A stretch of 64,000 bases of DNA from Trachythela sp. YZ-2020. Its lineage: Eukaryota > Cnidaria > Anthozoa > Malacalcyonacea > Clavulariidae. The position numbers were made by a program, and so were the translations under genes. The DNA is taken from contig JADLSH010000158.1 of the NCBI GenBank assembly GCA_016169945.1, forward strand, positions 1,089,001 through 1,153,000, written 5' to 3'. The notes under the pieces are model-generated. The model was not told where the DNA came from. It worked only from the letters and a program-made list of their open reading frames with translations, and did no database searches. This document shows positions 1-64,000 of this stretch, in pieces (position 1 is the stretch's first letter; every line of letters starts with the position of its first letter).

Positions 1-1718
1 CGTTATGTAATGTTATTGAAAGGTAACATCGACGTCGCCATGTAACATGTTAGGTCGCTGCTGTTTCCAGTGTGTTATACATGCCGAGTCGAACCCTTAT
101 TAAACGGACACCGCCAGGAATTAGCCGAGGTGTCCGCTTAAAAGAAGTCTACAGAAAAAACAGTAGGAGGCAAATTTGTGTGTGCATTTTGAGTATGAAA
201 ACAGTTTTCAATTTGTAATGTAAAGGCAAAGTTCGAGCGTGTCTGTGAGATCTACCTGCCAGGTTACAAACGAATCCAATTATATTTTACATTCACCCAA
301 ATGAAATGTCAGATGATATGAAAGTTATTGCTCACATCCGTAAGTTCATGGTGGCGCTGTCACCGCTGTGGGCAAACAAAATCTTTGAAGCGCGCAAGTA
401 ACTCAGAAAATGTTATAATAGAAGGAAGGGATTGATCTAGAAAAATAGTTCAAATGTAGTATAAATTGCTTTGAATTTATATTTACAGTTGATTGCTCAT
501 ATGAACATTGTATAATATGAAACCATCTCTCCTCTAACCGCGTTTAAGTAACGTCAGTGTTAGGTGCAGAGAAAGGGCTAGTAGGATGGAAATTGCTTCC
601 ACGTGCTTCACTGCATTTGTTTGTTTTACACTCTCCTTGCTCTTCTAAACCATCATGATGACGACACAAGCATGCTCTCATTTCTAAAATATCAATGTAA
701 TATACTTAAAATTGCCTACTATTCAAATTCTGAATTACACACAGATAGCATATTAATATAACTATAATACATGAAACGTTGTACTTCTCAGGCTATGCAT
801 GCCTAAGCTGCTCAAATTCGACTTGTTTTAAAATGCGAGAGGCAATTTAATATACTTAACTTGTTTACAGCGTGCATGTCGGTGTTAAAGTTTGGGCAAA
901 CTGACAACGAGAACCAACGTAGGCGTACAAGATACAACCGCTGATGTTGAAAAAAACATTAATAGAATAGCGACTGAAAACAGGTCGAATAAGAAATTTG
1001 TAAACAGTGCCAGTATATCGCATAAAACTTTTCACATGCTTTGTGGTGTAATCGCAGTAGAATAATGTATAAGACAGGGGCACGGGTCAGCCACGTATTT
1101 TAACACAAAGGTTCAAGCAAACAAGGCATTGTGGTCGCCAGTAAGGCATTGTCTATATCCTTATTCTATGGCATTGTGGTCGCAAGCAAGGCATTGTGGT
1201 CAAAAACGAAGTGAATCTTGCTTTGCAGACTCTATTACATAAATTCGAAATGCTGACTAACTCGCTCGCTGCAGGCTCGCTCGGTGCGTCAGCAATTAGA
1301 ACTGCTGACTGCTCGCTCGCTGCAGGCTCACTAGCTGCGTCAGCAATTATGTAGACATATTCTGCTTTCGTAAATGACATCAATGGAGCGAGGTTTAGGT
1401 TTGAACTATATCTTAACCAAGTTTTTAACTCCTTCTGCATGTGCTGGTTGTATTTCAAATAAAAATGGCAAAAATGTAATTCATTAGTTATTTATTACCA
1501 CGATAAAACAATATAATTATATGCTATTTGAGTTAATTAAAGCTGTTTCTAGTGCTGAATATTTTAGAATTCCAGTCCCTCTAGTATATACTCTAACGCA
1601 GAGAATATAGTTTTCTGAGACCTACAATATTACTCTATTCAGTTTGGCAATCATTTTAATTTTGGATATATTCTTGGTAAATGACATCGGTGGAACGATA
1701 TAGATCACAAACTATATC
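1..1718. other. Non-coding flank downstream of the fibrinogen-like gene
   Basis: No exon is recognisable. Two local duplications are visible. A phrase beginning GGCATTGTGGTCGC recurs at about 1125-1205. A unit of about 50 bp containing CTCGCTCGCTGCAGGCTC is repeated in tandem at about 1250-1349. A stretch at about 1371-1417 (AAATGACATC...ACTATATCTTA) is echoed at 1680-1722, overlapping the stop codon of the neighbouring gene, so part of the 3' end has been duplicated downstream. Confidence 0.5.
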
Positions 1719-49131: not shown

Positions 49132-50212
49132 CCGCTTATTGGCGCTGCTCGTCGCGGTCGGGTACGTAAAAATCATAGAATATAAATATTAAAGAGTCCT
49201 GGTCAACCACAATGCAATGCGTGCGTTTGTTTACGTTTTTATGTTGTGAGCCAGAGGCGGCCATTTTGTGTGACATCGAAAATGGCGGCACTGTTAATAA
49301 AAGTAACGAGAAAACGTAAACAAAGGCGCGCATTGCATTGCGGTTGACCAGGACTCGTTAATATGATCATGATTCTACATTGTATAGTATAGTTACATCA
49401 TGAAGTGCGCATGCGTAGATGCGCGTAGCAGGAACAATCAACAACCACAATAATTAGAACGTATTTGTGGTTATAAATTGCGTTCATCTGTGTATGTGCA
49501 CCACTTACTCGCAGCAAGCAGCGGACAGGCCCTGCTCATCTCAATACCCGGATGCCATCTTCGGAGAATTTTTGCAGAGAACATTAAATATGCTCTCCTA
49601 CCACAGAATATGCATTCAAGCTTGCGGCGTGCATTTTCGGAACGTACGTTCGACGTTTCGAAGTGTATGTTTTGCCACACCGACATGTTATGTTTAGGCA
49701 ATATATAAACTTACACGGTTTGGGGCTTTGAACCTCATGTTTTGCTTTATACGCACTAGAAAGTTTTTTACATATTCGTACAGCGACCGTATGTTTACAT
49801 TTCTCATAGAATGTGAATCCATCTCCTAAATCACTAAAAACCTCTTGCGTGCGTGACAAAACATGGCATTCGAAGCGCCAGAACATGTCAATTTCATTGC
49901 CCAAACATGACATAAGGCGTGGCAAAACGTACGTTTTGAAATGCTAAACGTACGTTTTGAAACGTAAAACGTACGTTTTGAAAATGCACGCCGCAAACTT
50001 GAACTCAAATGGTAATAATTGGAATTACGAGAGAATACAGTTTTCGATTGTATTTACAAAACATAAACTTACTATGTATGGACATATAAAACTTTTCTTA
50101 ATTATTACCGGCGCTGCTCGTCGCGGTTGGGTACGTAAAAATCATAGAATATAAATATTAATATTATCATGATTCTACATTGTGTAACATTGTGTAGTAT
50201 ACTAGTTACATC

Positions 50213-50215
<3 letters not shown>
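49132..50215 (+). repeat. Direct duplication (filled and empty site) flanking an inverted-repeat block
   Basis: The segment GGCGCTGCTCGTCGCGG through TTACATCA occurs at 49141-49410 (with the TTAA MITE) and at 50110-50214 (without it). Between the copies, about 49600-49710 and 49905-50000 form an inverted repeat with AAACGTACGTTTTGAAA-like palindromes and GCACGCCGCAA at the inner ends. Confidence 0.75.
49193..49357. mobile_element. 165-bp piggyBac-type MITE flanked by TTAA
   Basis: The inverted ends AGAGTCCTGGTCAACCACAA and the complement ending GGTTGACCAGGACTCG (about 45 bp imperfect) are flanked by TTAA at 49189-49192 and 49358-49361. A paralogous copy of the flanks at 50105-50215 has a single TTAA (50158-50161) and no insert, so the boundaries are confirmed by an empty site. 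Confidence 0.85.
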
Positions 50216-50276
<61 letters not shown>

Positions 50277-50492
50277 GCAACAACAACAACAACAGCAGCA
50301 GCAAGCAGCAGCAAGCAGCAGCAAGCAGCAGCAAGCAGCAGCAAGCAGCAGCAAGCAGCAGCAGCAGCAGCAAGCAGCAGCAAGCAGCAGCAAGCAGCAG
50401 CAAGCAGCAGCAACAGCAACAGCAACAACAGCAACAAGCAGCAACAACAGCAACAGCAACAACAACAACAGCAACAGCAGCAGCAACAACGA
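50212..50492 (+). repeat. (CAA)n/(CAGCAGCAAG)n compound microsatellite
   Basis: About 20 CAA units run from 50213, then a block with period about 9-10 (AGCAGCAAGC) to about 50410, then mixed CAA/CAG to 50490. All frames are open over much of it, which is a composition effect and not a poly-Gln gene. Confidence 0.9.
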
Positions 50493-50516
50493 CGAGGAGT
50501 TCATTTTGAGTGCAAC

Positions 50517-50742
50517 TGGGAGATCTTTGATATGTGTTGTATTAATGGTCAAAATATCAGATAATTTGATCAATTTTAAGTGCTTTAAATAGCCGCCGAA
50601 ACTTTCGTCTCAGAAACGTGCTTCCGATGAATTTTATCAAAAAGATGAAACTTTCGGTGGCTATTTTATTTTAAGGGACTTATAATTGAGCAATTTTTCT
50701 GATATTTTGACCATTAATACAACACATAACAAAGTCCCCGAT
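50517..50742. mobile_element. MITE with long imperfect inverted arms
   Basis: TATGTGTTGTATTAATGGTC (about 50531) and its complement at about 50711-50729 continue into TCAAAATATCAG and further. An inner pair, AATAGCCGCCGAAACTTTCG and CGAAAGTTTCGTC-type sequence (50655), also pairs. Non-coding. Confidence 0.75.
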
Positions 50743-53925: not shown

Positions 53926-56900
53926 CTAATGCAAAGATTTCGCCTTTTTTACCGTAAAATTCCTTACATAATCTTTTATATGTGACCATTGTCGATCCTT
54001 GATCAGGCTTTTGTGGAGCTCGAGGAATTTCTCGCATTCATCTTTTTTGGGGAGTTCATTTTCTCGAATATGTCTTGAAAAATATCCGTGTACGGCCTTT
54101 TTCTCTGCTGATGACCACGGATTTGGCCTGCTGGATCTTTTCCGTTGCTTTGGTCCCTCTTAAAAATTAACAAAACGATGTCTCAGCATATTTAAATTGT
54201 TTGTAATAGACAAAAAGAGTGCTCAACACCAAATAAAAGCAGAGCAAAAATATTATTATTTAATCTTAATAAAGCCGTCGTTACACGGTGTTTCATCCTT
54301 AATTCTAAAAGCGAAGCGATCTTCAGGCGACTAAAGTAGATTCTATTCATTATTCAATTCATAAGCTGTTTGTTTATATCTGACGCTTGCATGTGTATAT
54401 TGTAAAACAGTATACGCGCCTCGTCGGCTATAAGCTCATATACGACAAGAGTTAGCAGAATAACTGTTAAATATAGGTCCATAAAAGTTGTTTAAATTTA
54501 ACTCGAAACGTGGCTAGAAAAAGTAGAAAAGAAAAACTACTTCCTTCCATGAAATAACCTCATATTCTATCCACCTGGGCGTGTGATAAGGTATACAACT
54601 TGCCAGTAATCTCCGAAATAAGTCTACTGCTTCGATCTGTGTTTCGCCGCTAACATTTATTTATATACTTTCAAGACATACATGCATGCTTCAATAAAAA
54701 GAATTCTCCCTCAGTCTTAACACGTGTCGCAAGTTGCATAAAAATTCTCTTACCTGACGTCGTATTTCTCGCATTCTTTCCTACCACTGTTGACTGATCT
54801 TGTAACTCGCCTGTAATCAAAACGGCTTTAGTTAGTCATAAATATACTGTGAGTTAACAACGAATAACCCTATCACGGACAGGGTAGCCCATCTAGTCTA
54901 TTAACGCGAACAAGTATGATTATAAGTGTTTATTTGTAATCAACTTACATGTTGCATGTATACAACCGTAACAACATAAAAACTTGATTTTACGTTGACA
55001 GTCAATGCTAACAAGTTGTACGTATTTACGAAAATATATTTATAAAATGTGAAAGGATAACGTACTTATTCTACAATTTAAAATCTAAAATTTGTTCAAG
55101 TTAAGAAAATTTAGCTTAAGTTTCGTCCATCATGCATGTAAGCCATGATTCCGTTGTTACCAAAACTTTTGTTAGCACTGATGAAGATCCGGGTTTATGG
55201 ATCAAAACATCGCAATAATTAAATAGGATCTAAAAACTAATACTAATAAGAACTAAGTAAGCACCAACTGCCAAACCATTTATAGTTGCTGAGCGCAACA
55301 GTTGAAGACTATTTTTAGTGTTATTACAATAAAACGACGACTGTTTCGGGTAGTCCTTGAACTTCACACTTTATACAGGTAAACACATGCTAATGAGTCA
55401 TGTGAAAAGTCAGATATAAGTAACAGATCATCACCACATAATTTAGGTAAAACCAATATTGTGACCACGGTTGTTAAAAGGTGTAGCTAATAAATCACAT
55501 CAGGATATATCTCTATATATGTGTGTGGATATAGCATACTTGGTGTTTCGTCTTTCGACCTCTCCGCCAGATCATCCAAAGATTGAGATGACGTACCTGT
55601 TTGGAAATAAATTAACAAATTACAGTAACATGTAAAAAGTAGTGGAAAGCGAATAGGTTTTGGGATCTACGAATTTTGGCTGAGAAGTAATTGCAGATTT
55701 CGGTTTCTGTTAGAATTTTTGTCGGATTTGCGGATCCTACAAAAGTAGCCGATTGCGGATTTCCTCAGATATCAGTTTCGGATTGTGGATCTTCCTTGTC
55801 ATTTGGACTTGCTATTGAATTTGATCACCACGTGAAAAGAAGTCGCCAAGTATAACGAACGAAATTATTACATGGAATACAAATTGTTTGGGCTTACCGT
55901 AGATACGACAGGAGTTTTTGGTAAAAATAAATTGTTTATTCATTGTGATATTTAGAAATTATTCCTTTCATTCTTCATCAGTTGTGAATTATTGGATTGT
56001 TCCAACTCAAATTTTTAAGATACAATATACGCAGCTCTGCATGCACTTTAATTAAATTACATTATACTAATGGTTTGACACAAACTACATCAATTTAGGA
56101 TACATACCATCTCCCTCAGTGATATCCCGAGTTCCATATGAGTTATTCGCTTCTTCGAAATCTATTGGCGAATAAAATGTATTTGGCTCAATAAAACTCT
56201 AAAAGTACCTTTAAATCTTCTATTTTCTGGTGAAATGGTAGTTACACTTAATCTACTGTAATAAAAAATATGGCGGCTATCGATTTACACATAGTGCACG
56301 TGCATTGCAGTTGGAAATTATTTATGACAACAGTTAAAACACATTTTTAAATATCTGCTAAAACTTCGTGTCATTGTCTTTTTATTGTCACTCATTTTTG
56401 CGGATTTATTCTTGCTACCCGCAAAGGATTATAGGTAGATCGACATACTTTTCATCTTTTTCTATTATGACGAATTCTAATAATTGTAACTCTAATACTG
56501 GCAATTGTACATGTAACTGTAAAGTGCGTGATTTTCATTGGTTAACTTTCGCACTAACTGCAGTTAACTTTAACTACAGTATCTTTTTATACCAGCGCCA
56601 ATGCAGGCCGTGCAATTTCCCGTTGGTGAACAAAAGATTAATAATCACGCAAACTGAAATTATAGACTTAGGCCTAAGTCGAACGTCGCTCTTCTCATGC
56701 GCCGAACTTAACTACAGAATTAAGTGCAACACAAGAGCGACGTTTGATTCTATTAAGTTTGGCAAAATCAATTTGGAGCGAGACGAAACAATTGGAGCGA
56801 CAGCAAATCAAACGTCGCTTTGTTGATGCGCCAAACTTATAAATATATAAATTATTTTAATTTAGTTTTGCCCTTGAATTCAGGCTGGGCATGCACAAAT

Positions 56901-59900
56901 AAGCTGGTATGTAAACATTAATATACTCTAGAAGTGTAATATAAATACAATTTATTGTCATGCGTTTTCCAGCGGTTGTCAGTGGTTTAGTGGTTATGCT
57001 CTATGCTCATTGCGCGCTATCTCTTGGGTTCGCTCCCTCGACTGTCCTTCGAATTCATTTTGCAGTTCTGTTCATTATTTGTTCTCACTCTTATTTCTAT
57101 GTGCAGCCACTTTTAAACATTTTTGAGGTCTACTAGGTTAGATTAGGGGTTAGGGTTGGGGTTAATTTTTGACGTCTTTTACGCTCTTAATATTTTTTCA
57201 ACAAATCTTTCATATCAGATAACATTTTGAAGTGTTTTCTTAAATTTCGCGCAGGTGAATTCTTAAAAGGTACTTCATGTAAAACAATTATGTGAATTAG
57301 GTTCGACGTATTATTAAGTTCGACGTTTGACTCGACGCCGCTTAATTCGCTCGACCTAGTGTCGAATCTAATTGTATTAGGTTCGGCGCATGAAAAGAGC
57401 GACGTTTGACCTAGGCCTTACAGACATTTCAAGAAATTACAAGAGGATAATAAACGCTGCAAAAGTTTGAAAGAAAAAAGGGAATAGTATTGCCAAAACC
57501 TTCACAGGGAAGGGGATGTAGAAGTACATCTTATCGAAGCACTAATCAATTTGATTGTTGTTTGCGGTGTGTTCTAAGAGTACACAATGGGTAACTAAAT
57601 ATTGTATTACCTGCTATTGTGATGTCTCTTGGATTCTTTCCCTTGAACTGGTGAGCTCGACCTTCGTCAACAGCCAACAGTAGGTTTCCCACAACAGCCA
57701 ACTCTAACGTGGTTTGAGGCAATCTATAAAATTCTTTGTGGACATGAATGTCGTGGCCAAGATGGTTTGCTAACCACCCCATTTCAGACTCGTTCATGTC
57801 CACAAGCTGGCTAACGGTAGCGACATACTTTCTCAAATTAGTAGACTTGACTAGCTCTGGCTGCTCTAATTCAACTTTTTCACATGTCTTCTTGATGACA
57901 TCATGCCCTCTCAACGAATTTTGTGATTTGCCGTCGTTTACAGCAAAAATAAACTCGTTGCTTTCACAAACATCAGCCGCTTCTCTCTTTTGATTCAACA
58001 CCACTATTGCCGCCTTTACATCTTCGGTTAAAATCACTGGTACCTTTCTCTTTCTTTTTCCTACAATTTCCACCAGGTCAAACCTGAAATAAATAAACTT
58101 TGAACTTAGTAACGTGATTATACCTGGTCCTTCTCCTGGTCCTGTATATAGGAAAAATGTTGACATTGTGATTTGTGTATTTGAAAACATTGTTGTGCTT
58201 GGTGGATATACATACCGTTTACAAAGTTCTTGTTCACTAAGTGAAAGTGATTGGAATATCTCTTTATTATGTAGTTTATTCCAATTTGGTCGCGACTCGA
58301 ATGCTTGAATTGTCATTCTGGCAGCTTCACCTCCTAATGACAACAAGAACGTATTGCAATTAGAAACCATAAATACGTAAAAAGAAATCATATCTGCAAG
58401 AATATATTAGTGATATCGTGGGACAATATAAAACCAAACAAGACAAGAATTAACACTGTATTTTCTTGTTCATTTTAATTAAAGTGATCTTTATCTTCCT
58501 CACGATAAATTTGAAATGAAGTCAAACGTTTTCACTTTAAACAATTTGTCTTGTTGATTAATATATTTTGTTTTGAAGATGTCAGTGCTTGTATATAAAA
58601 AAATATTTACCTCTTCTTTTGTTAAACATAATGAGTCTGGTGAGGCAGAGTTCTGCAAGTTCTCTCCAATCTTCTTTGGAAACGTCTTTATTGCTGCACG
58701 TGGAGACAGACTTGGTGACGACGGATAGCCGATGAACAACGTATTGTCGCAGTGCCAAAAGGTCACTTGTTAAAGGTAACAGTTCAGGCGAGTTGTGTTT
58801 CCTGAATGCCAGGTTGTTTAACGCGGGAGATACAATTTTATTGTGCCATTCTGCTTCGTAAAGCTGAAGGAAGCAATCGATATCACTCTTTGTTTCCATA
58901 TCTTTCTCCCGGAGTGCTTGGCATCGTACAATTATTGCAGCCTTCTTCAGCTCATATCCACAAGCCACTGCTGTTGCTGGAGCCCTAAAAATCTTTTTTG
59001 ACGACGACCCATCCTTTTCTTCATAACCAGCGATATTTAGGGCAGAGTTCATAAGAATATCAAAATTTCCAGGATTTAGCAGAGACTGGAGCGTGGCATT
59101 TTGGTCGCCAGTTAATTTCCTGCCTTGTTGGACAATTCTACCAAGAAGTCTCATCTTCTGCGACACTTCTGATGCCTTTTCGGTGCCTTTGTTCTTGAGT
59201 AGTTGGCTTCCTAATGTCAAGATTGTTTTATCGGTTTGAACCAGTAGGCTGATGGAATCGTAGGCCATTTTAGAGATCACTTTCTCTGACAATAATTTGC
59301 TGCACCCTTCAGGAAAATGACCAGCTGCCAACATACATCTTCCTTCATATTTCATACGCCTCGATCCATGTTTTTCCTCTTCCTTAAATGGGCATTTCGG
59401 TGCATGCCTCCATAATTCGTCAGCCAAAAAATCCGTGACAGAATTTGCATGGCAAATAATCACTAATCTTTGGTGACGTGTTTGATGAAGGTCTTCTCAC
59501 CACCTTTAGTTCTCCTTCATTCAGCTCAAGTACCTTCATGTTGTGATTATAGTTCCCATTCGGCACAATTTTTCAAACTGACGAACTCTTTTTTCGTCCT
59601 TTGGCTTGTATTGTAGGGCTATGCTCACTTCTTCTTCTTCACTGTGCACCTGTGCGAGATGCCTAGCAATTTTTGAGTACTCTTTTCCGCAGAAGAAACA
59701 GCTATGTTTCTTGTCGTACGTTCTCTCGTCCTCTGCATCGGCGGTAATAATGTAAACTAAAAAGATAAGATATGTCATTTAGACACTCAGGTTTTGATCC
59801 AAAGTCAGAGTCACTATAAAGAGGAAATAGCACAACTAAGAGATACAGAGCTCCAAAATGTCATTCAAACGGTTCTGTATCCTATTAAACAACCTATTGG

Positions 59901-61453
59901 AATTTTTATCTAGCAAAAGCTAAACTAAAATCCGTAGTATATCATACGATAACTCGGTCAAAAAGTTTAAAAATGCTTAAGATTATAAATCTTTGAGTGC
60001 AAACACTATTTCTGCGTTTTGTTATTTTTATGTTATTTTTTAGACAGTTAACAGGGAAATGTCAGGGTTGTATTAAAAAGTAGTAAAATTAATCGCAGAT
60101 ATATTCAAGAGTTACAGTGACTACTTCAACAAAAAAACAGTCTTCGCTCGAAACGTAGAAGTTTTCCTAGCTTGTATTTTTCAGGTTATTTCCATTCCTA
60201 CCAAGATTATATAGAACACCAAATGTTTGTTATTCAAACGGTTAATTTAAGCGGTTCGGCAAGCACTGCGCATGGCTGTTGATTATTTCCGCGAACGAAA
60301 TTGGGCCAGGAATCCAGAACCTTCTAACGATTAACTAACGATTAACATTTCTATAGCGCAAATTTACATGTGAATATGATCAAATGCGCTTTACATCAAG
60401 TGTTACGCTTACCTAATTACACACCTAGCCTAGACTATTTTATCTTTACAACGATTGTGATATTACTTTCTTAACTGTGTTTATCCTAACCCACCCTGTC
60501 AACTTTCCCTGTGGGAGGAAACCGGAGTGCCCGGAGAAAACCCACGACTTTCGGCAGAGCGTTGACCGACTCTTTTCACATCAGTCCGTTGCGAGAATCG
60601 AACCCACGAACTCAGAGGTGAAAGGCGCTTGCCCTGACGACCGCGCCACCGAAGCCCCCTAATATTAATTCTTTAATTCAATCACTGATAAATTTTAGAG
60701 GGGAGTGATTATGTTCTTAACAAAGCGGAAAAGTACTTCTTTGTCAATTTTAAAAGTTACTTGTAGTACTACATTTATACAACACGCGTATAAATACTTG
60801 CAAGCTAAACTTGTACCTTTTGACTGAGTGCCGGCTGTTTCAGCTTCATACACATTCTTTCTATGGCTTGTTTTTTGTCGAGCCTTGTCATCTGCAAAAT
60901 TTTGAAGCATGTTATAAAGTATAATATTAAATAATATATTTTGTCACCATAGACCATATGCTCTGGATTAACATATACACATGGAATGTGCCCCTAAAAT
61001 TTATTGGATTTTTATCTAATAAAAACCAAATTAAATCCGTAGTATCTTATGCGGTAGCTTGATTAAACAATATTATAAAATGCTTAAAATTATAAATTGT
61101 TTATTCGAAGCCTATTTCTGCGTTTTGTTTATTATAGGTCTTGGTTAATTAATAGACAAATATTATGCACGAGCCACTTGTGTACAAATGTCGTAAACTT
61201 AACTAGAGTTAATGCGGAAGTTAACAATCAGAATCGCGTATTCGAGCGATAACTAGTGCTAATTTATATAACTAGTGCTATTATATTTTCGTCATTTCTT
61301 TATAGAATCTTAGTATGCTCTGGATTACCATATACTCCTGGAATGTGCTCCCATAATATATTGGGCTTTTATTTAGCAAAATCCAAATGAAATCAGTAAT
61401 GTCTCATTCGATAACTCAGTTAAAAGTTTTTAAAATGTTTAAGATTATAAATC

Positions 61454-61502
<49 letters not shown>

Positions 61503-63646
61503 TTATTTTTTTCTCGCTCGTGATTGATCGAAATGCCTGTGATCGAAATGATAATTCTGGGTATCTTGAACCTGCCCCCCCCCCCTCCCCTATTTCAGCT
61601 GCTTAAGTCACCAGCGGTGATAACACTTTATTTAGACCGAAGTTCGGTAAAAAATTTCCATAGAGTTAAGAGTGATAGCTGTTGATTATTTAAAACAAAT
61701 ATTGTTACATTAAATATCGAATAGCAAATAGTGAAGCTTGCTTGTGGTTTATTTTATCAAACATCATGTCTGTTCGTCTGGTGTTGGTATTTGTTTTCTT
61801 TCCTGATTTTTAATATAGGTTTTGATAAAACAATTATTGAATTCGATATTCGTATGATATCAAGAATTATCATGGTAGAAAATGTGTGTTTCTCTAGTTT
61901 GGAGAAAAACCGTGCAGTTTCGTATCATAAGCTCACTCCAGTACAACATAAGCATCAGTACATTCCAGGTTGAGCATAGTTCAGATTTATTGCATGCATA
62001 AACAATAGACCAAGAAAATAGCGTAACCAAACGATATAGAACACCAAATGTATGTTATTCAAACGGTTAATTTATGTCAGGCAAGCGGTTCGGTAAGCAC
62101 TGCGCATGGCTGTTGATTATTTCATGAATGAAATTGGGCCAGGAATCCAGAACCTTCTATGCTATACAATATTAATTCTTTAATTCAATCACTGATAAAT
62201 TTTAGAGGAGTGATTATGTTCTTAACAAAGCGGAAAAGTACTTCTTTGTCAATTTTAAAAGTTACTAGTAGTATTGCATTTATACAAGACGTGTATACAA
62301 TACTTGCAAGCTAAACTTGTACCTTTTGACTGAGTGCCGGCTGTTTCAGCTTCATACACATCCTTTCTATGGCTTGTTGTTTGTAGAGCCTTGCCATCTG
62401 CAAAATTTTGAAGCATGTTATAAAGTATAATATTAAATAACATATCTTGTTACCTTGCAGGAGCCACTTGTGTACAGATATCGTAAACTTAACTAGAGTT
62501 AATGCGGAAGTTAACAATCAGAATCGCGTATTCGAGCGATAACTAGTGCTAACGATATTATATTTTCGTCATCTCTTTATAGAATCTTAGTATGCTCCGG
62601 CTTACCATATATACTCCTGGAATGTACTCCCATAATATATTGGGCTTTTATTTAGCAAAATCCAAATGAAATCAGTAATGTCTCATTCGATAACTCAGTT
62701 AAAAGTTCTTAAAATGTTTAAGATAATAAATCATTATATATATATATACTTATATTTTCTCGCTCGTGATTGATCGAAATGCCTGTGATCGAAATGATAA
62801 TTCTGGGTATCTTGAACCTGCCCCCCCCCCTCCCCTATTTCAGCTGCTTAAGTCACCAGCGGTGATAACACTTTATTTAGACCGAAGTTCGGTAAAAAAT
62901 TTCCATAGAGTTAAGAGTGATAGCTGTTGATTATTTAAAACAAATATTGTTACATTAAATATCGAATAACAAATAGTGAAGCTTGCTTGTGGTTTATTTT
63001 TATCAAACATCATGTCTGTTCGTCTGGTGTTGGTATTTGTTTTCTTTCCTGATTTTTAATATAGGTTTTGATAAAACAATTATTGAATTCGATATTCGTA
63101 TGATATCAAGAATTATCATGGTAGAAAATGTGTGTTTCTCGAGTTTGGAGAAAAACCGTGCAGTTTCGTATCATAAGCTCACTCCAGTACAACATAAGCA
63201 TCAGTACATTCCAGGTTGAGCATAGTTCAGATTTATTGCATGCATAAACAATAGACCAAGAAAATAGCGTAACCAAACGATATAGAACACCAAATGTATG
63301 TTATTCAAACGGTTAATTTATGTCAGGCAAGCGGTTCGGTAAGCACTGCGCATGGCTGTTGATTATTTCCGCGAATGAAATTGGGCCAGGAATCCAGAAC
63401 CTTCTATGCTATACAATATTAATTCTTTAATTCAATCACTGATAAATTTTAGAGGGGAGTGATTATGTTCTTAACAAAGCAGAAAAGTACTTCTTTGTCA
63501 ATTTTAAAAGTTACTAGTAGTATTGCATTTATACAAGACGCGTATACAATACTTGCAAGCTAAACTTGTACCTTTTGACTGAGTGCCGGCTGTTTCAGCT
63601 TCATACACATTCTTTCTATGGCTTGTTTTTTGTCGAGCCTTGTCAT
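53926..63646 (-). CDS. Zinc-finger, tyrosine-recombinase-like protein with SANT/Myb-like tail; 5' end beyond window
   Basis: Minus-strand exons, all GT-AG and in phase: 60817-60891 (75 nt, plus duplicates at 62323-62397 and 63572-63646), 58611-59756, 58216-58333, 57611-58083, 56108-56161, 55540-55596, 54754-54810 and 53926-54158 (TAG). One 75-nt exon gives about 737 residues. The large exon starts with a C2H2 finger (CFFCGKEYSKIARH...H) and a second Cys/His motif (LPCKFCHGF...LWRHAPKCPF). A phage-integrase-like core follows: NKRRGGEAARM (first catalytic Arg), STNLRKYVATVSQL (second Arg, usual His missing), WLANHLGHDIHVHKEFYRLP (His and nucleophile Tyr). The last exon has NPWSSAEKKAVHGYF and RQWSHIKDYVRNF. 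Similar multi-copy proteins occur in fish and cnidarians, with function unknown. Two one-base shifts (near 59557-59561 and in A6 at 59426-59431) cancel, so they may be decay or sequencing error. Confidence 0.78.
56660..57430. mobile_element. Inverted-repeat element in an intron, with a tRNA-like interior
   Basis: The left end (about 56665) TTAGGCCTAAGTCGAACGTC...CATGCGCCGAAC pairs with the complement of the right end GTTCGGCGCATGAAAAGAGC...GACCTAGGCCTTA (about 57383-57420). Extra copies of GAGCGACGTTTGA occur inside. At 56978-57048 a tRNA-like stretch has A-box-like TTTAGTGGTTATG and B-box-like GGGTTCGCTCCCTC. A relative of the end sequence is at about 35945-35985. Confidence 0.65.
59870..60060. 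repeat. Diverged partial copy of the 1.25-kb tandem unit
   Basis: ATTGGAATTTTTATCTAGCA...AAATCCGTAGTAT...AAAATGCTTAAGATTATAAA resembles the block at 60998-61130 and its copies, with more differences. It suggests an older fourth unit. Confidence 0.6.
60325..60660 (-). mobile_element. tRNA-derived SINE
   Basis: Read on the minus strand, the head is GGGGCTTCGGTGGCGCGGTC...AGGGCAAG with an A-box-like TGGCGCGGTCGTCAGG, then the B box GGTTCGATTCTCG. A central conserved-looking block (GGGTTTTCTCCGGGCACTCC and GGTTTCCTCCCACAG) follows. It is absent at the corresponding place in the other two tandem units (near 62162 and 63411), which marks the insertion boundaries. Confidence 0.75.
61452..61503. repeat. 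(TA)n microsatellite
   Basis: About 23 TA units. The matching place in the next unit (62737-62748) has only about six. Confidence 0.95.
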
Positions 63647-64000
63647 CTGCAAAATTTTGAAGCATGTTATAAAGTATAATATTAAATAATATATTTTGTC
63701 ACCATAGACCATATGCTCTGGATTAACATATACACATGGAATGTGCCCCTAAAATTTATTGGATTTTTATCTAATAAAAACCAAATTAAATCCGTAGTAT
63801 CTTATGCGGTAGCTTGATTAAACAATATTATAAAATGCTTAAAATTATAAATTGTTTATTCGAAGCCTATTTCTGCGTTTTGTTTATTATAGGTCTTGGT
63901 TAATTAATAGACAAATATTATGCACGAGCCACTTGTGTACAAATGTCGTAAACTTAACTAGAGTTAATGCGGAAGTTAACAATCAGAATCGCGTATTCGA

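What the first reader, a model, noticed from the sequence alone, without database searches (positions are those of the whole stretch)
60817..63646. Triplicated 75-nt phase-symmetric exon upstream of a recombinase-like gene
Three copies (60817-60891, 62323-62397, 63572-63646) each have an acceptor, 75 open nucleotides and a donor, and all are phase 1 to phase 1. Any number of them, or any one alone, can be spliced in without breaking frame. Copies one and three appear to encode the same 25 residues; copy two differs at several residues yet stays open (DGKALQTTSHRKDV against DDKARQKTSHRKNV). That invites mutually exclusive or variable-copy splicing of a hydrophilic linker just before the C2H2 finger.
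Basis: partly seen in the sequence, partly recalled or inferred. Interest (0 to 1): 0.78.

Follow-up and report, generated by a model that had tools for sequence, protein, structure and literature searches.

The report
Copy-variable tandem exon in coral gene
A short protein-coding exon in a coral-type gene for a recombinase-like protein has been copied head-to-tail together with its intron, and its copy number differs between near-identical genomic copies of the gene, so the linker in front of the protein's zinc finger could vary in length; whether cells splice the copies in is not yet known.

Summary
In detail: three 75-nt stretches lie at the stated coordinates on the minus strand, with AG/GT borders, open in phase 1-1. 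Copies 1 and 3 are identical; copy 2 differs by four bases, all amino-acid changing. They are part of a larger array: a 1.25-1.5 kb exon-plus-intron unit (types A and B) amplified as a 2.75 kb A-B dimer. The window's contig carries five copies, a 99% identical locus seven, a roughly 98% identical locus two. A splice-anchored pattern over the 578 Mb assembly hit 18 sites, all this exon family, against 0 in the reversed control; four are diverged relatives in two paralogues, and for one of these similarity was shown to end near the splice sites. So this is a real, old exon, recently and unstably amplified. Phase-compatible exons lie upstream, outside the window. Most likely: tandem duplication of a frame-neutral linker exon by unequal exchange, changing linker length. 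Mutually exclusive splicing has no support. No transcripts were available; the main exon in the window is frame-broken as assembled, though open at two sister loci. A new member of a known kind.

The parts
63572..63646 (-). cassette exon copy, type A (A2 of the 5-copy array on contig C86)
   Evidence: 75/75 identical to 60817-60891; AG/GT; phase 1-1
62323..62397 (-). cassette exon copy, type B (B2)
   Evidence: 71/75 to type A; four amino-acid changes
60817..60891 (-). cassette exon copy, type A (A3, last before the finger exon)
60661..64000 (-). part of the tandem array that lies in the window; the array continues to about C86:1155436 (2.4 kb beyond the window)
   Evidence: C86 self-match 1149661-1152684 to 1152415-1155436 at 99.1%; A against B about 94% with gaps
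58611..59756 (-). F exon: C2H2-like finger and long conserved region; frame-broken as assembled here, open at two sister loci
   Evidence: Pfam finger matches below cut-off
58216..58333 (-). G exon (GGEAARMTIQAF...CKR)
   Evidence: matches Paramuricea P0013 and Dendronephthya P0024; borders
57611..58083 (-). R exon, tyrosine-recombinase-like
   Evidence: Pfam Phage_integrase E 0.0049 for G+R, below cut-off; 97 homologues; borders
53926..54159 (-). probable C-terminal exon; its SANT/Myb-like look is recalled, not tested with a match; borders approximate
   Evidence: open stretch; no Pfam match at E<=1

Best explanation
A small phase 1-1 exon coding for a hydrophilic linker before a zinc finger, in a multigene family with a recombinase-like domain found in octocorals, sits in a unit that has been tandemly duplicated with its intron. 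Unequal exchange between units first made a diverged pair (A, B) and then amplified the 2.75 kb A-B dimer, so copy number differs between near-identical copies of the locus. Because each unit is frame-neutral, any number of copies can be spliced in, and the likely consequence is a linker of 25 x n residues between the N-terminal exons and the finger. SHOWN: array, copy numbers in the assembly, phases, splice-site conservation, homologues in paralogues, upstream phase-compatible exons. INFERRED: unequal exchange as the cause, inclusion in mRNA, effect on linker length.
For: 14 of 14 copies at the three loci carry the same 12-nt acceptor and 10-nt donor and are open in phase 1. A paralogue (C16), 65% identical over a 267-residue stretch of the F exon, carries two diverged relatives of 87 and 78 nt with the same kind of borders and phase: against type A, 0 of 10000 shuffles reached the first and 15 of 10000 the second. 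The alignment of A with the first runs from TTTTGCAG| to 19 nt past the donor; ungapped identity in the further flanks is 26 of 80 and 31 of 90. Pattern: 18 hits, control 0. Copy numbers 5, 7, 2. Like units differ by 0.6% or less once the array-edge stretch of A1 is set aside; A and B differ by 2-4% of intron positions plus about 270 gap columns. Upstream exons U (phase 1-1) and V (ends phase 1). The family's F exon is under constraint: dN/dS 0.06 over 135 codons against C16 (dS 2.08, saturated). A Dendronephthya family protein (P0022) has three near-identical blocks of about 42 residues directly before the same finger exon.
Against: No transcript was available. A and B differ by 4 nonsynonymous and 0 synonymous changes, and A against C16's first relative gives dN/dS 1.22 on 24 codons, so the cassette's coding sequence shows no purifying selection there (A against the second relative gives 0.48 on 25 codons). 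Between A and B the exon (4 of 75) is no better conserved than the intron. As assembled, none of the three loci has both the F and the R exon open. The database search with cassettes in the query gave 8 hits whose coverage (64-76% of 180 residues, F part alone 72%) leaves at most a few residues of cassette matched. P0022's blocks do not visibly resemble the cassette and their exon borders are unknown.
Confidence: 0.6

Rival explanations
1. Passenger array: the cassette is a real exon, but the extra copies are bystanders of intronic repeat growth; only one copy (for example the one nearest the finger) or none is spliced in.
For: Whole units with intron are duplicated, and identical borders need no selection at this low divergence; A/B changes are all nonsynonymous; F and R exons are never both open at one of the three loci as assembled.
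Against: 14 of 14 copies keep splice sites and the phase-1 frame, though little decay is expected at this age.
Confidence: 0.25
2. Mutually exclusive splicing: exactly one of A or B is chosen, giving two linker variants.
For: Two diverged types, A and B, that differ at 4 of 25 residues.
Against: 75 nt is frame-neutral, so double inclusion is not punished; introns are over 1 kb; the 25 inverted repeats shown of 62 are TA-rich, with no docking-site pattern seen in the window part; exon copies of one type on C86 and C341 are identical, so choice among them would be idle.
Confidence: 0.06
3. Assembly artefact: copy numbers 5, 7 and 2 are errors of assembly, or the three loci are alleles of one locus.
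For: Near-identical 2.75 kb repeats are hard to assemble; contig C341 ends inside another tandem array; homology of C86 with the other two contigs is long (tens of kb).
Against: Units carry private differences and length changes. The left flanks of the three contigs do not match each other beyond repeats within what was fetched, which speaks against simple alleles. Diverged relatives in two further paralogues cannot be artefacts of this array.
Confidence: 0.09

Closest known systems
Tandem exon duplication with cassette or mutually exclusive use (PMC9013439: abstract and passages seen)
   Same: A coding exon copied head-to-tail inside a gene.
   Different: Here the copies are nearly identical, their use is unknown, and their number differs between near-identical loci.
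Nebulin triplicate region (PMC9109913: only the search listing and start of abstract seen)
   Same: Exon-bearing block repeated within a gene and prone to copy-number variation.
   Different: Nebulin's block holds eight exons; here a single 75-nt linker exon per unit.
Crypton-derived tyrosine-recombinase genes (PMC3212892: abstract part and passages seen)
   Same: Animal genes with a recombinase-like domain; that the window's R exon lacks part of the catalytic set is my reading by eye.
   Different: Descent from Cryptons was not tested; Phage_integrase match is below cut-off.

Membership tests
Tandemly duplicated coding exon | Adjacent homologous exons in one orientation with splice sites | tested here: met
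   5 copies on C86, 7 on C341, 2 on C217, all AG/GT
Tandemly duplicated coding exon | Symmetric phase allowing any copy number | tested here: met
   phase 1-1; the chain of the window's three copies stays in frame into the F exon
Tandemly duplicated coding exon | Inclusion in transcripts | not testable with these tools
   no RNA data held
Mutually exclusive exon cluster | A device against double inclusion (frame, short intron or competing RNA structure) | tested here: not met
   75 nt, introns over 1 kb. Competing structures were looked for only as inverted repeats in 59760-64000, 25 of 62 shown, all TA-rich.
Tyrosine recombinase (Phage_integrase) | Profile match above the curated cut-off | tested here: not met
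   E 0.0049, 17.1 bits against 27.1; 5 of 52 relatives match at E<=0.01, best 0.00028
Tyrosine recombinase (Phage_integrase) | Fold | tested here: inconclusive
   models of mean pLDDT 51 and 54; Foldseek against PDB: 10 matches with E<=10, 0 with E<=0.001
C2H2 zinc finger | Profile match above cut-off | tested here: not met
   best PF18387, E 0.0061, 16.7 bits against 27; the CFFC...H...H spacing is seen by eye

The most novel reading that the evidence does not exclude
The array is a working length-tuner: whole-exon copy number, changing by unequal exchange between near-identical loci, sets the length of the charged linker in front of a DNA-binding finger. It would be a coding repeat whose unit is an entire exon plus intron, and the same place in the protein would have grown repeats independently in another octocoral (P0022).
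Probability: 0.25. Interest if true: 0.6.

Novelty: new member of a known kind. Interest (0 to 1): 0.38.

Why it matters
Here one exon is seen old (diverged relatives in paralogues), middle-aged (A against B) and new (identical copies, 2 to 7 per locus) in one genome, so one could ask directly whether splicing uses all copies of a freshly grown exon array and whether protein length follows copy number.

Tried and rejected
Structure of the recombinase-like part: two AlphaFold2 jobs gave mean pLDDT 51 and 54, and Foldseek gave nothing usable. PDB sequence searches gave nothing credible (best E 0.13 and 0.86). Rfam: no match in 56000-64000. Tandem Repeats Finder (longest period 500) shows only a TA run in 59000-64000, so it cannot see this array. 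Species name: not established; paper searches on assembly size and contig count did not settle it; 'octocoral' rests on the named relatives Paramuricea and Dendronephthya (one search also names two scallops). A relaxed splice pattern gave 39 hits, the same 18 plus 21 others, against 15 in the control; I recognised no new family member among the 21 by their letters and places. The genome-wide search for exon U did not complete. I first thought that the 25 residues before the finger in P0024 matched the cassette; after seeing the length of exon V's tail I dropped this. That the exon evolves faster than its intron between A and B was not significant (Fisher p 0.28 and 0.08 within C86, 0.56 within C341; the A1 comparisons include a non-homologous edge of about 30 nt). 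Literature on copy-number-variable tandem exons: one search found no paper, one listed one paper, one listed nebulin papers. Alleles against segmental duplicates: left open. One search stopped with an error after part of its output and was redone; one search printed exon U with wrong borders, corrected.

Full report
CHECK. The window is C86:1089001-1153000 of a 578,087,698-base, 396-contig assembly. The three stretches are present as described. The array goes on past the window: on C86 copies start at 1149817, 1151323, 1152572, 1154073 and 1155324 (types A, B, A, B, A); on C341 there are seven copies (ABABABA); on C217 two, one of type A and one with two of B's four changes. A genome search with the 75 nt found these 14 places and no other.

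UNIT. Self-comparison shows a 2.75 kb period at 99.1% and A-to-B matches of about 94% (gaps counted) over about 1.3 kb. Unit lengths are 1234-1251 nt (A) and 1499-1506 nt (B). Substitutions: A1-A2 on C86 17 of 1174 non-exon positions, 16 of them in the array-edge stretch upstream of exon A1; B1-B2 on C86 3 of 1422; on C341, A1-A2 20 of 1157 (16 at the edge), A2-A3 3 of 1159, B1-B2 9 of 1417, B2-B3 3 of 1419; A-B on C86 34 of 1167 and 24 of 1168, on C341 49 of 1161, with 4 of 75 in the exon each time; C86-A1 against C217-A1 15 of 1171, exon 0 of 75. The exon therefore travels with its intron.

THREE LOCI. C86 and C341 match at about 99% from C86:1133565 on, with 94.8-97.6% in the tandem array where C341 ends. 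C86 and C217 match in blocks of mostly 94-99% from C86:1141254 to at least C86:1183046. Left of these points the contigs do not match over the 44-56 kb compared, apart from repeats: 72-78% between C86 and the other two, and 89-99% multi-copy repeats at C341:185715-187565 against C217. This looks more like recent segmental duplicates than plain alleles, but structural haplotypes or assembly joins are not excluded.

GENE. Below the array, in the gene's direction, come the F exon (58611-59756), G (58216-58333) and R (57611-58083), with AG/GT borders and matching phases, and a probable C-terminal exon (53926-54159). Relatives: 21 proteins for part of F, 8 for the N-terminal part, 97 for R. Those that carry an organism name come from the octocorals Paramuricea and Dendronephthya and, for R, also from two scallops. 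Upstream, outside the window, a tblastn match to Dendronephthya P0022 (E 2e-20) marks exon U (C86:1158414-1158644, 231 nt, phase 1-1), and a weak match to P0024 (E 0.08) marks acidic exon V (C86:1156685-1156802, 118 nt, phase 0 to 1). V gains support from three paralogues, with matches at E 7e-9, 1e-8 and 3e-8. U does not splice to V in frame at V's first acceptor, though an inner acceptor 19 nt further in would keep frame; they may be alternative N-terminal routes. Both end in phase 1 and so can join a cassette or F directly.

AGE OF THE EXON. The genome holds 49 matches of the F-exon piece, 24 of them with stops inside. The best outside the three loci is on C16 (65%). There two relatives of the cassette were found: 262441-262527 (87 nt, upstream of V) and 264650-264727 (78 nt, between V and F), with the same kind of acceptor and donor, phase 1. 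The first aligns with type A from TTTTGCAG|ATGACAAG to 19 nt past the donor; beyond that the ungapped identity is 26 of 80 upstream and 31 of 90 downstream. The second aligns at DNA level only over its last 30 nt or so. Two more paralogues were looked at: C79 has the 78-nt form complete and C82 a damaged one; C79 also has the 87-nt form. The 18 pattern hits are C86 5, C341 7, C217 2, C16 2, C79 2.

SELECTION. F exon, C341 against C16 (the first 135 aligned codons): dN 0.13, dS 2.08, ratio 0.06. Cassette A against C16's first relative: 24 codons, dN 0.29, dS 0.24, ratio 1.22; against the second: 25 codons, dN 0.70, dS 1.47, ratio 0.48. A against B: 4 nonsynonymous, 0 synonymous. Silent sites of the cassette (A against the first relative) are less changed than those of F (3 of 14.5 against 54.8 of 77.8; Fisher p 0.0008 on rounded counts). 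This could mean constraint on the RNA, such as splicing enhancers, or later exchange of the exon; the alignment has gaps, the sample is tiny, and the second relative does not show it.

STATE OF THE GENE. As assembled, F is broken in the window but open at C341 and C217, while R is open in the window and broken at C341 and C217. Sequencing indels and real decay cannot be told apart here.

READING. The triplication is an excerpt of a copy-variable array. Variable-number inclusion fits best but is inferred; mutual exclusion has nothing beyond two diverged types to support it. The recombinase label stays weak.

Noticed in passing
window 60480-60660 (minus): A tRNA-derived SINE-like insertion (by eye, from the letters) in the last intron; not seen at the matching place beside the window's other two cassettes (families D7 and D8).
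   Followed up: no
C86:1161270-1167574 (L010, L015): A second tandem array, period about 2.28 kb, upstream of exon U; contig C341 ends inside it.
   Followed up: partly
P0022 (Dendronephthya gigantea): Three near-identical blocks of about 42 residues directly before the homologous finger exon; may be a parallel expansion at the same place.
   Followed up: partly
window 50105-50609: Long trinucleotide-type run, open in several frames.
   Followed up: no
window 1-1500: Dispersed repeat with 105 listed matches in the genome (40 of 296 candidates scored, so a lower bound).
   Followed up: no
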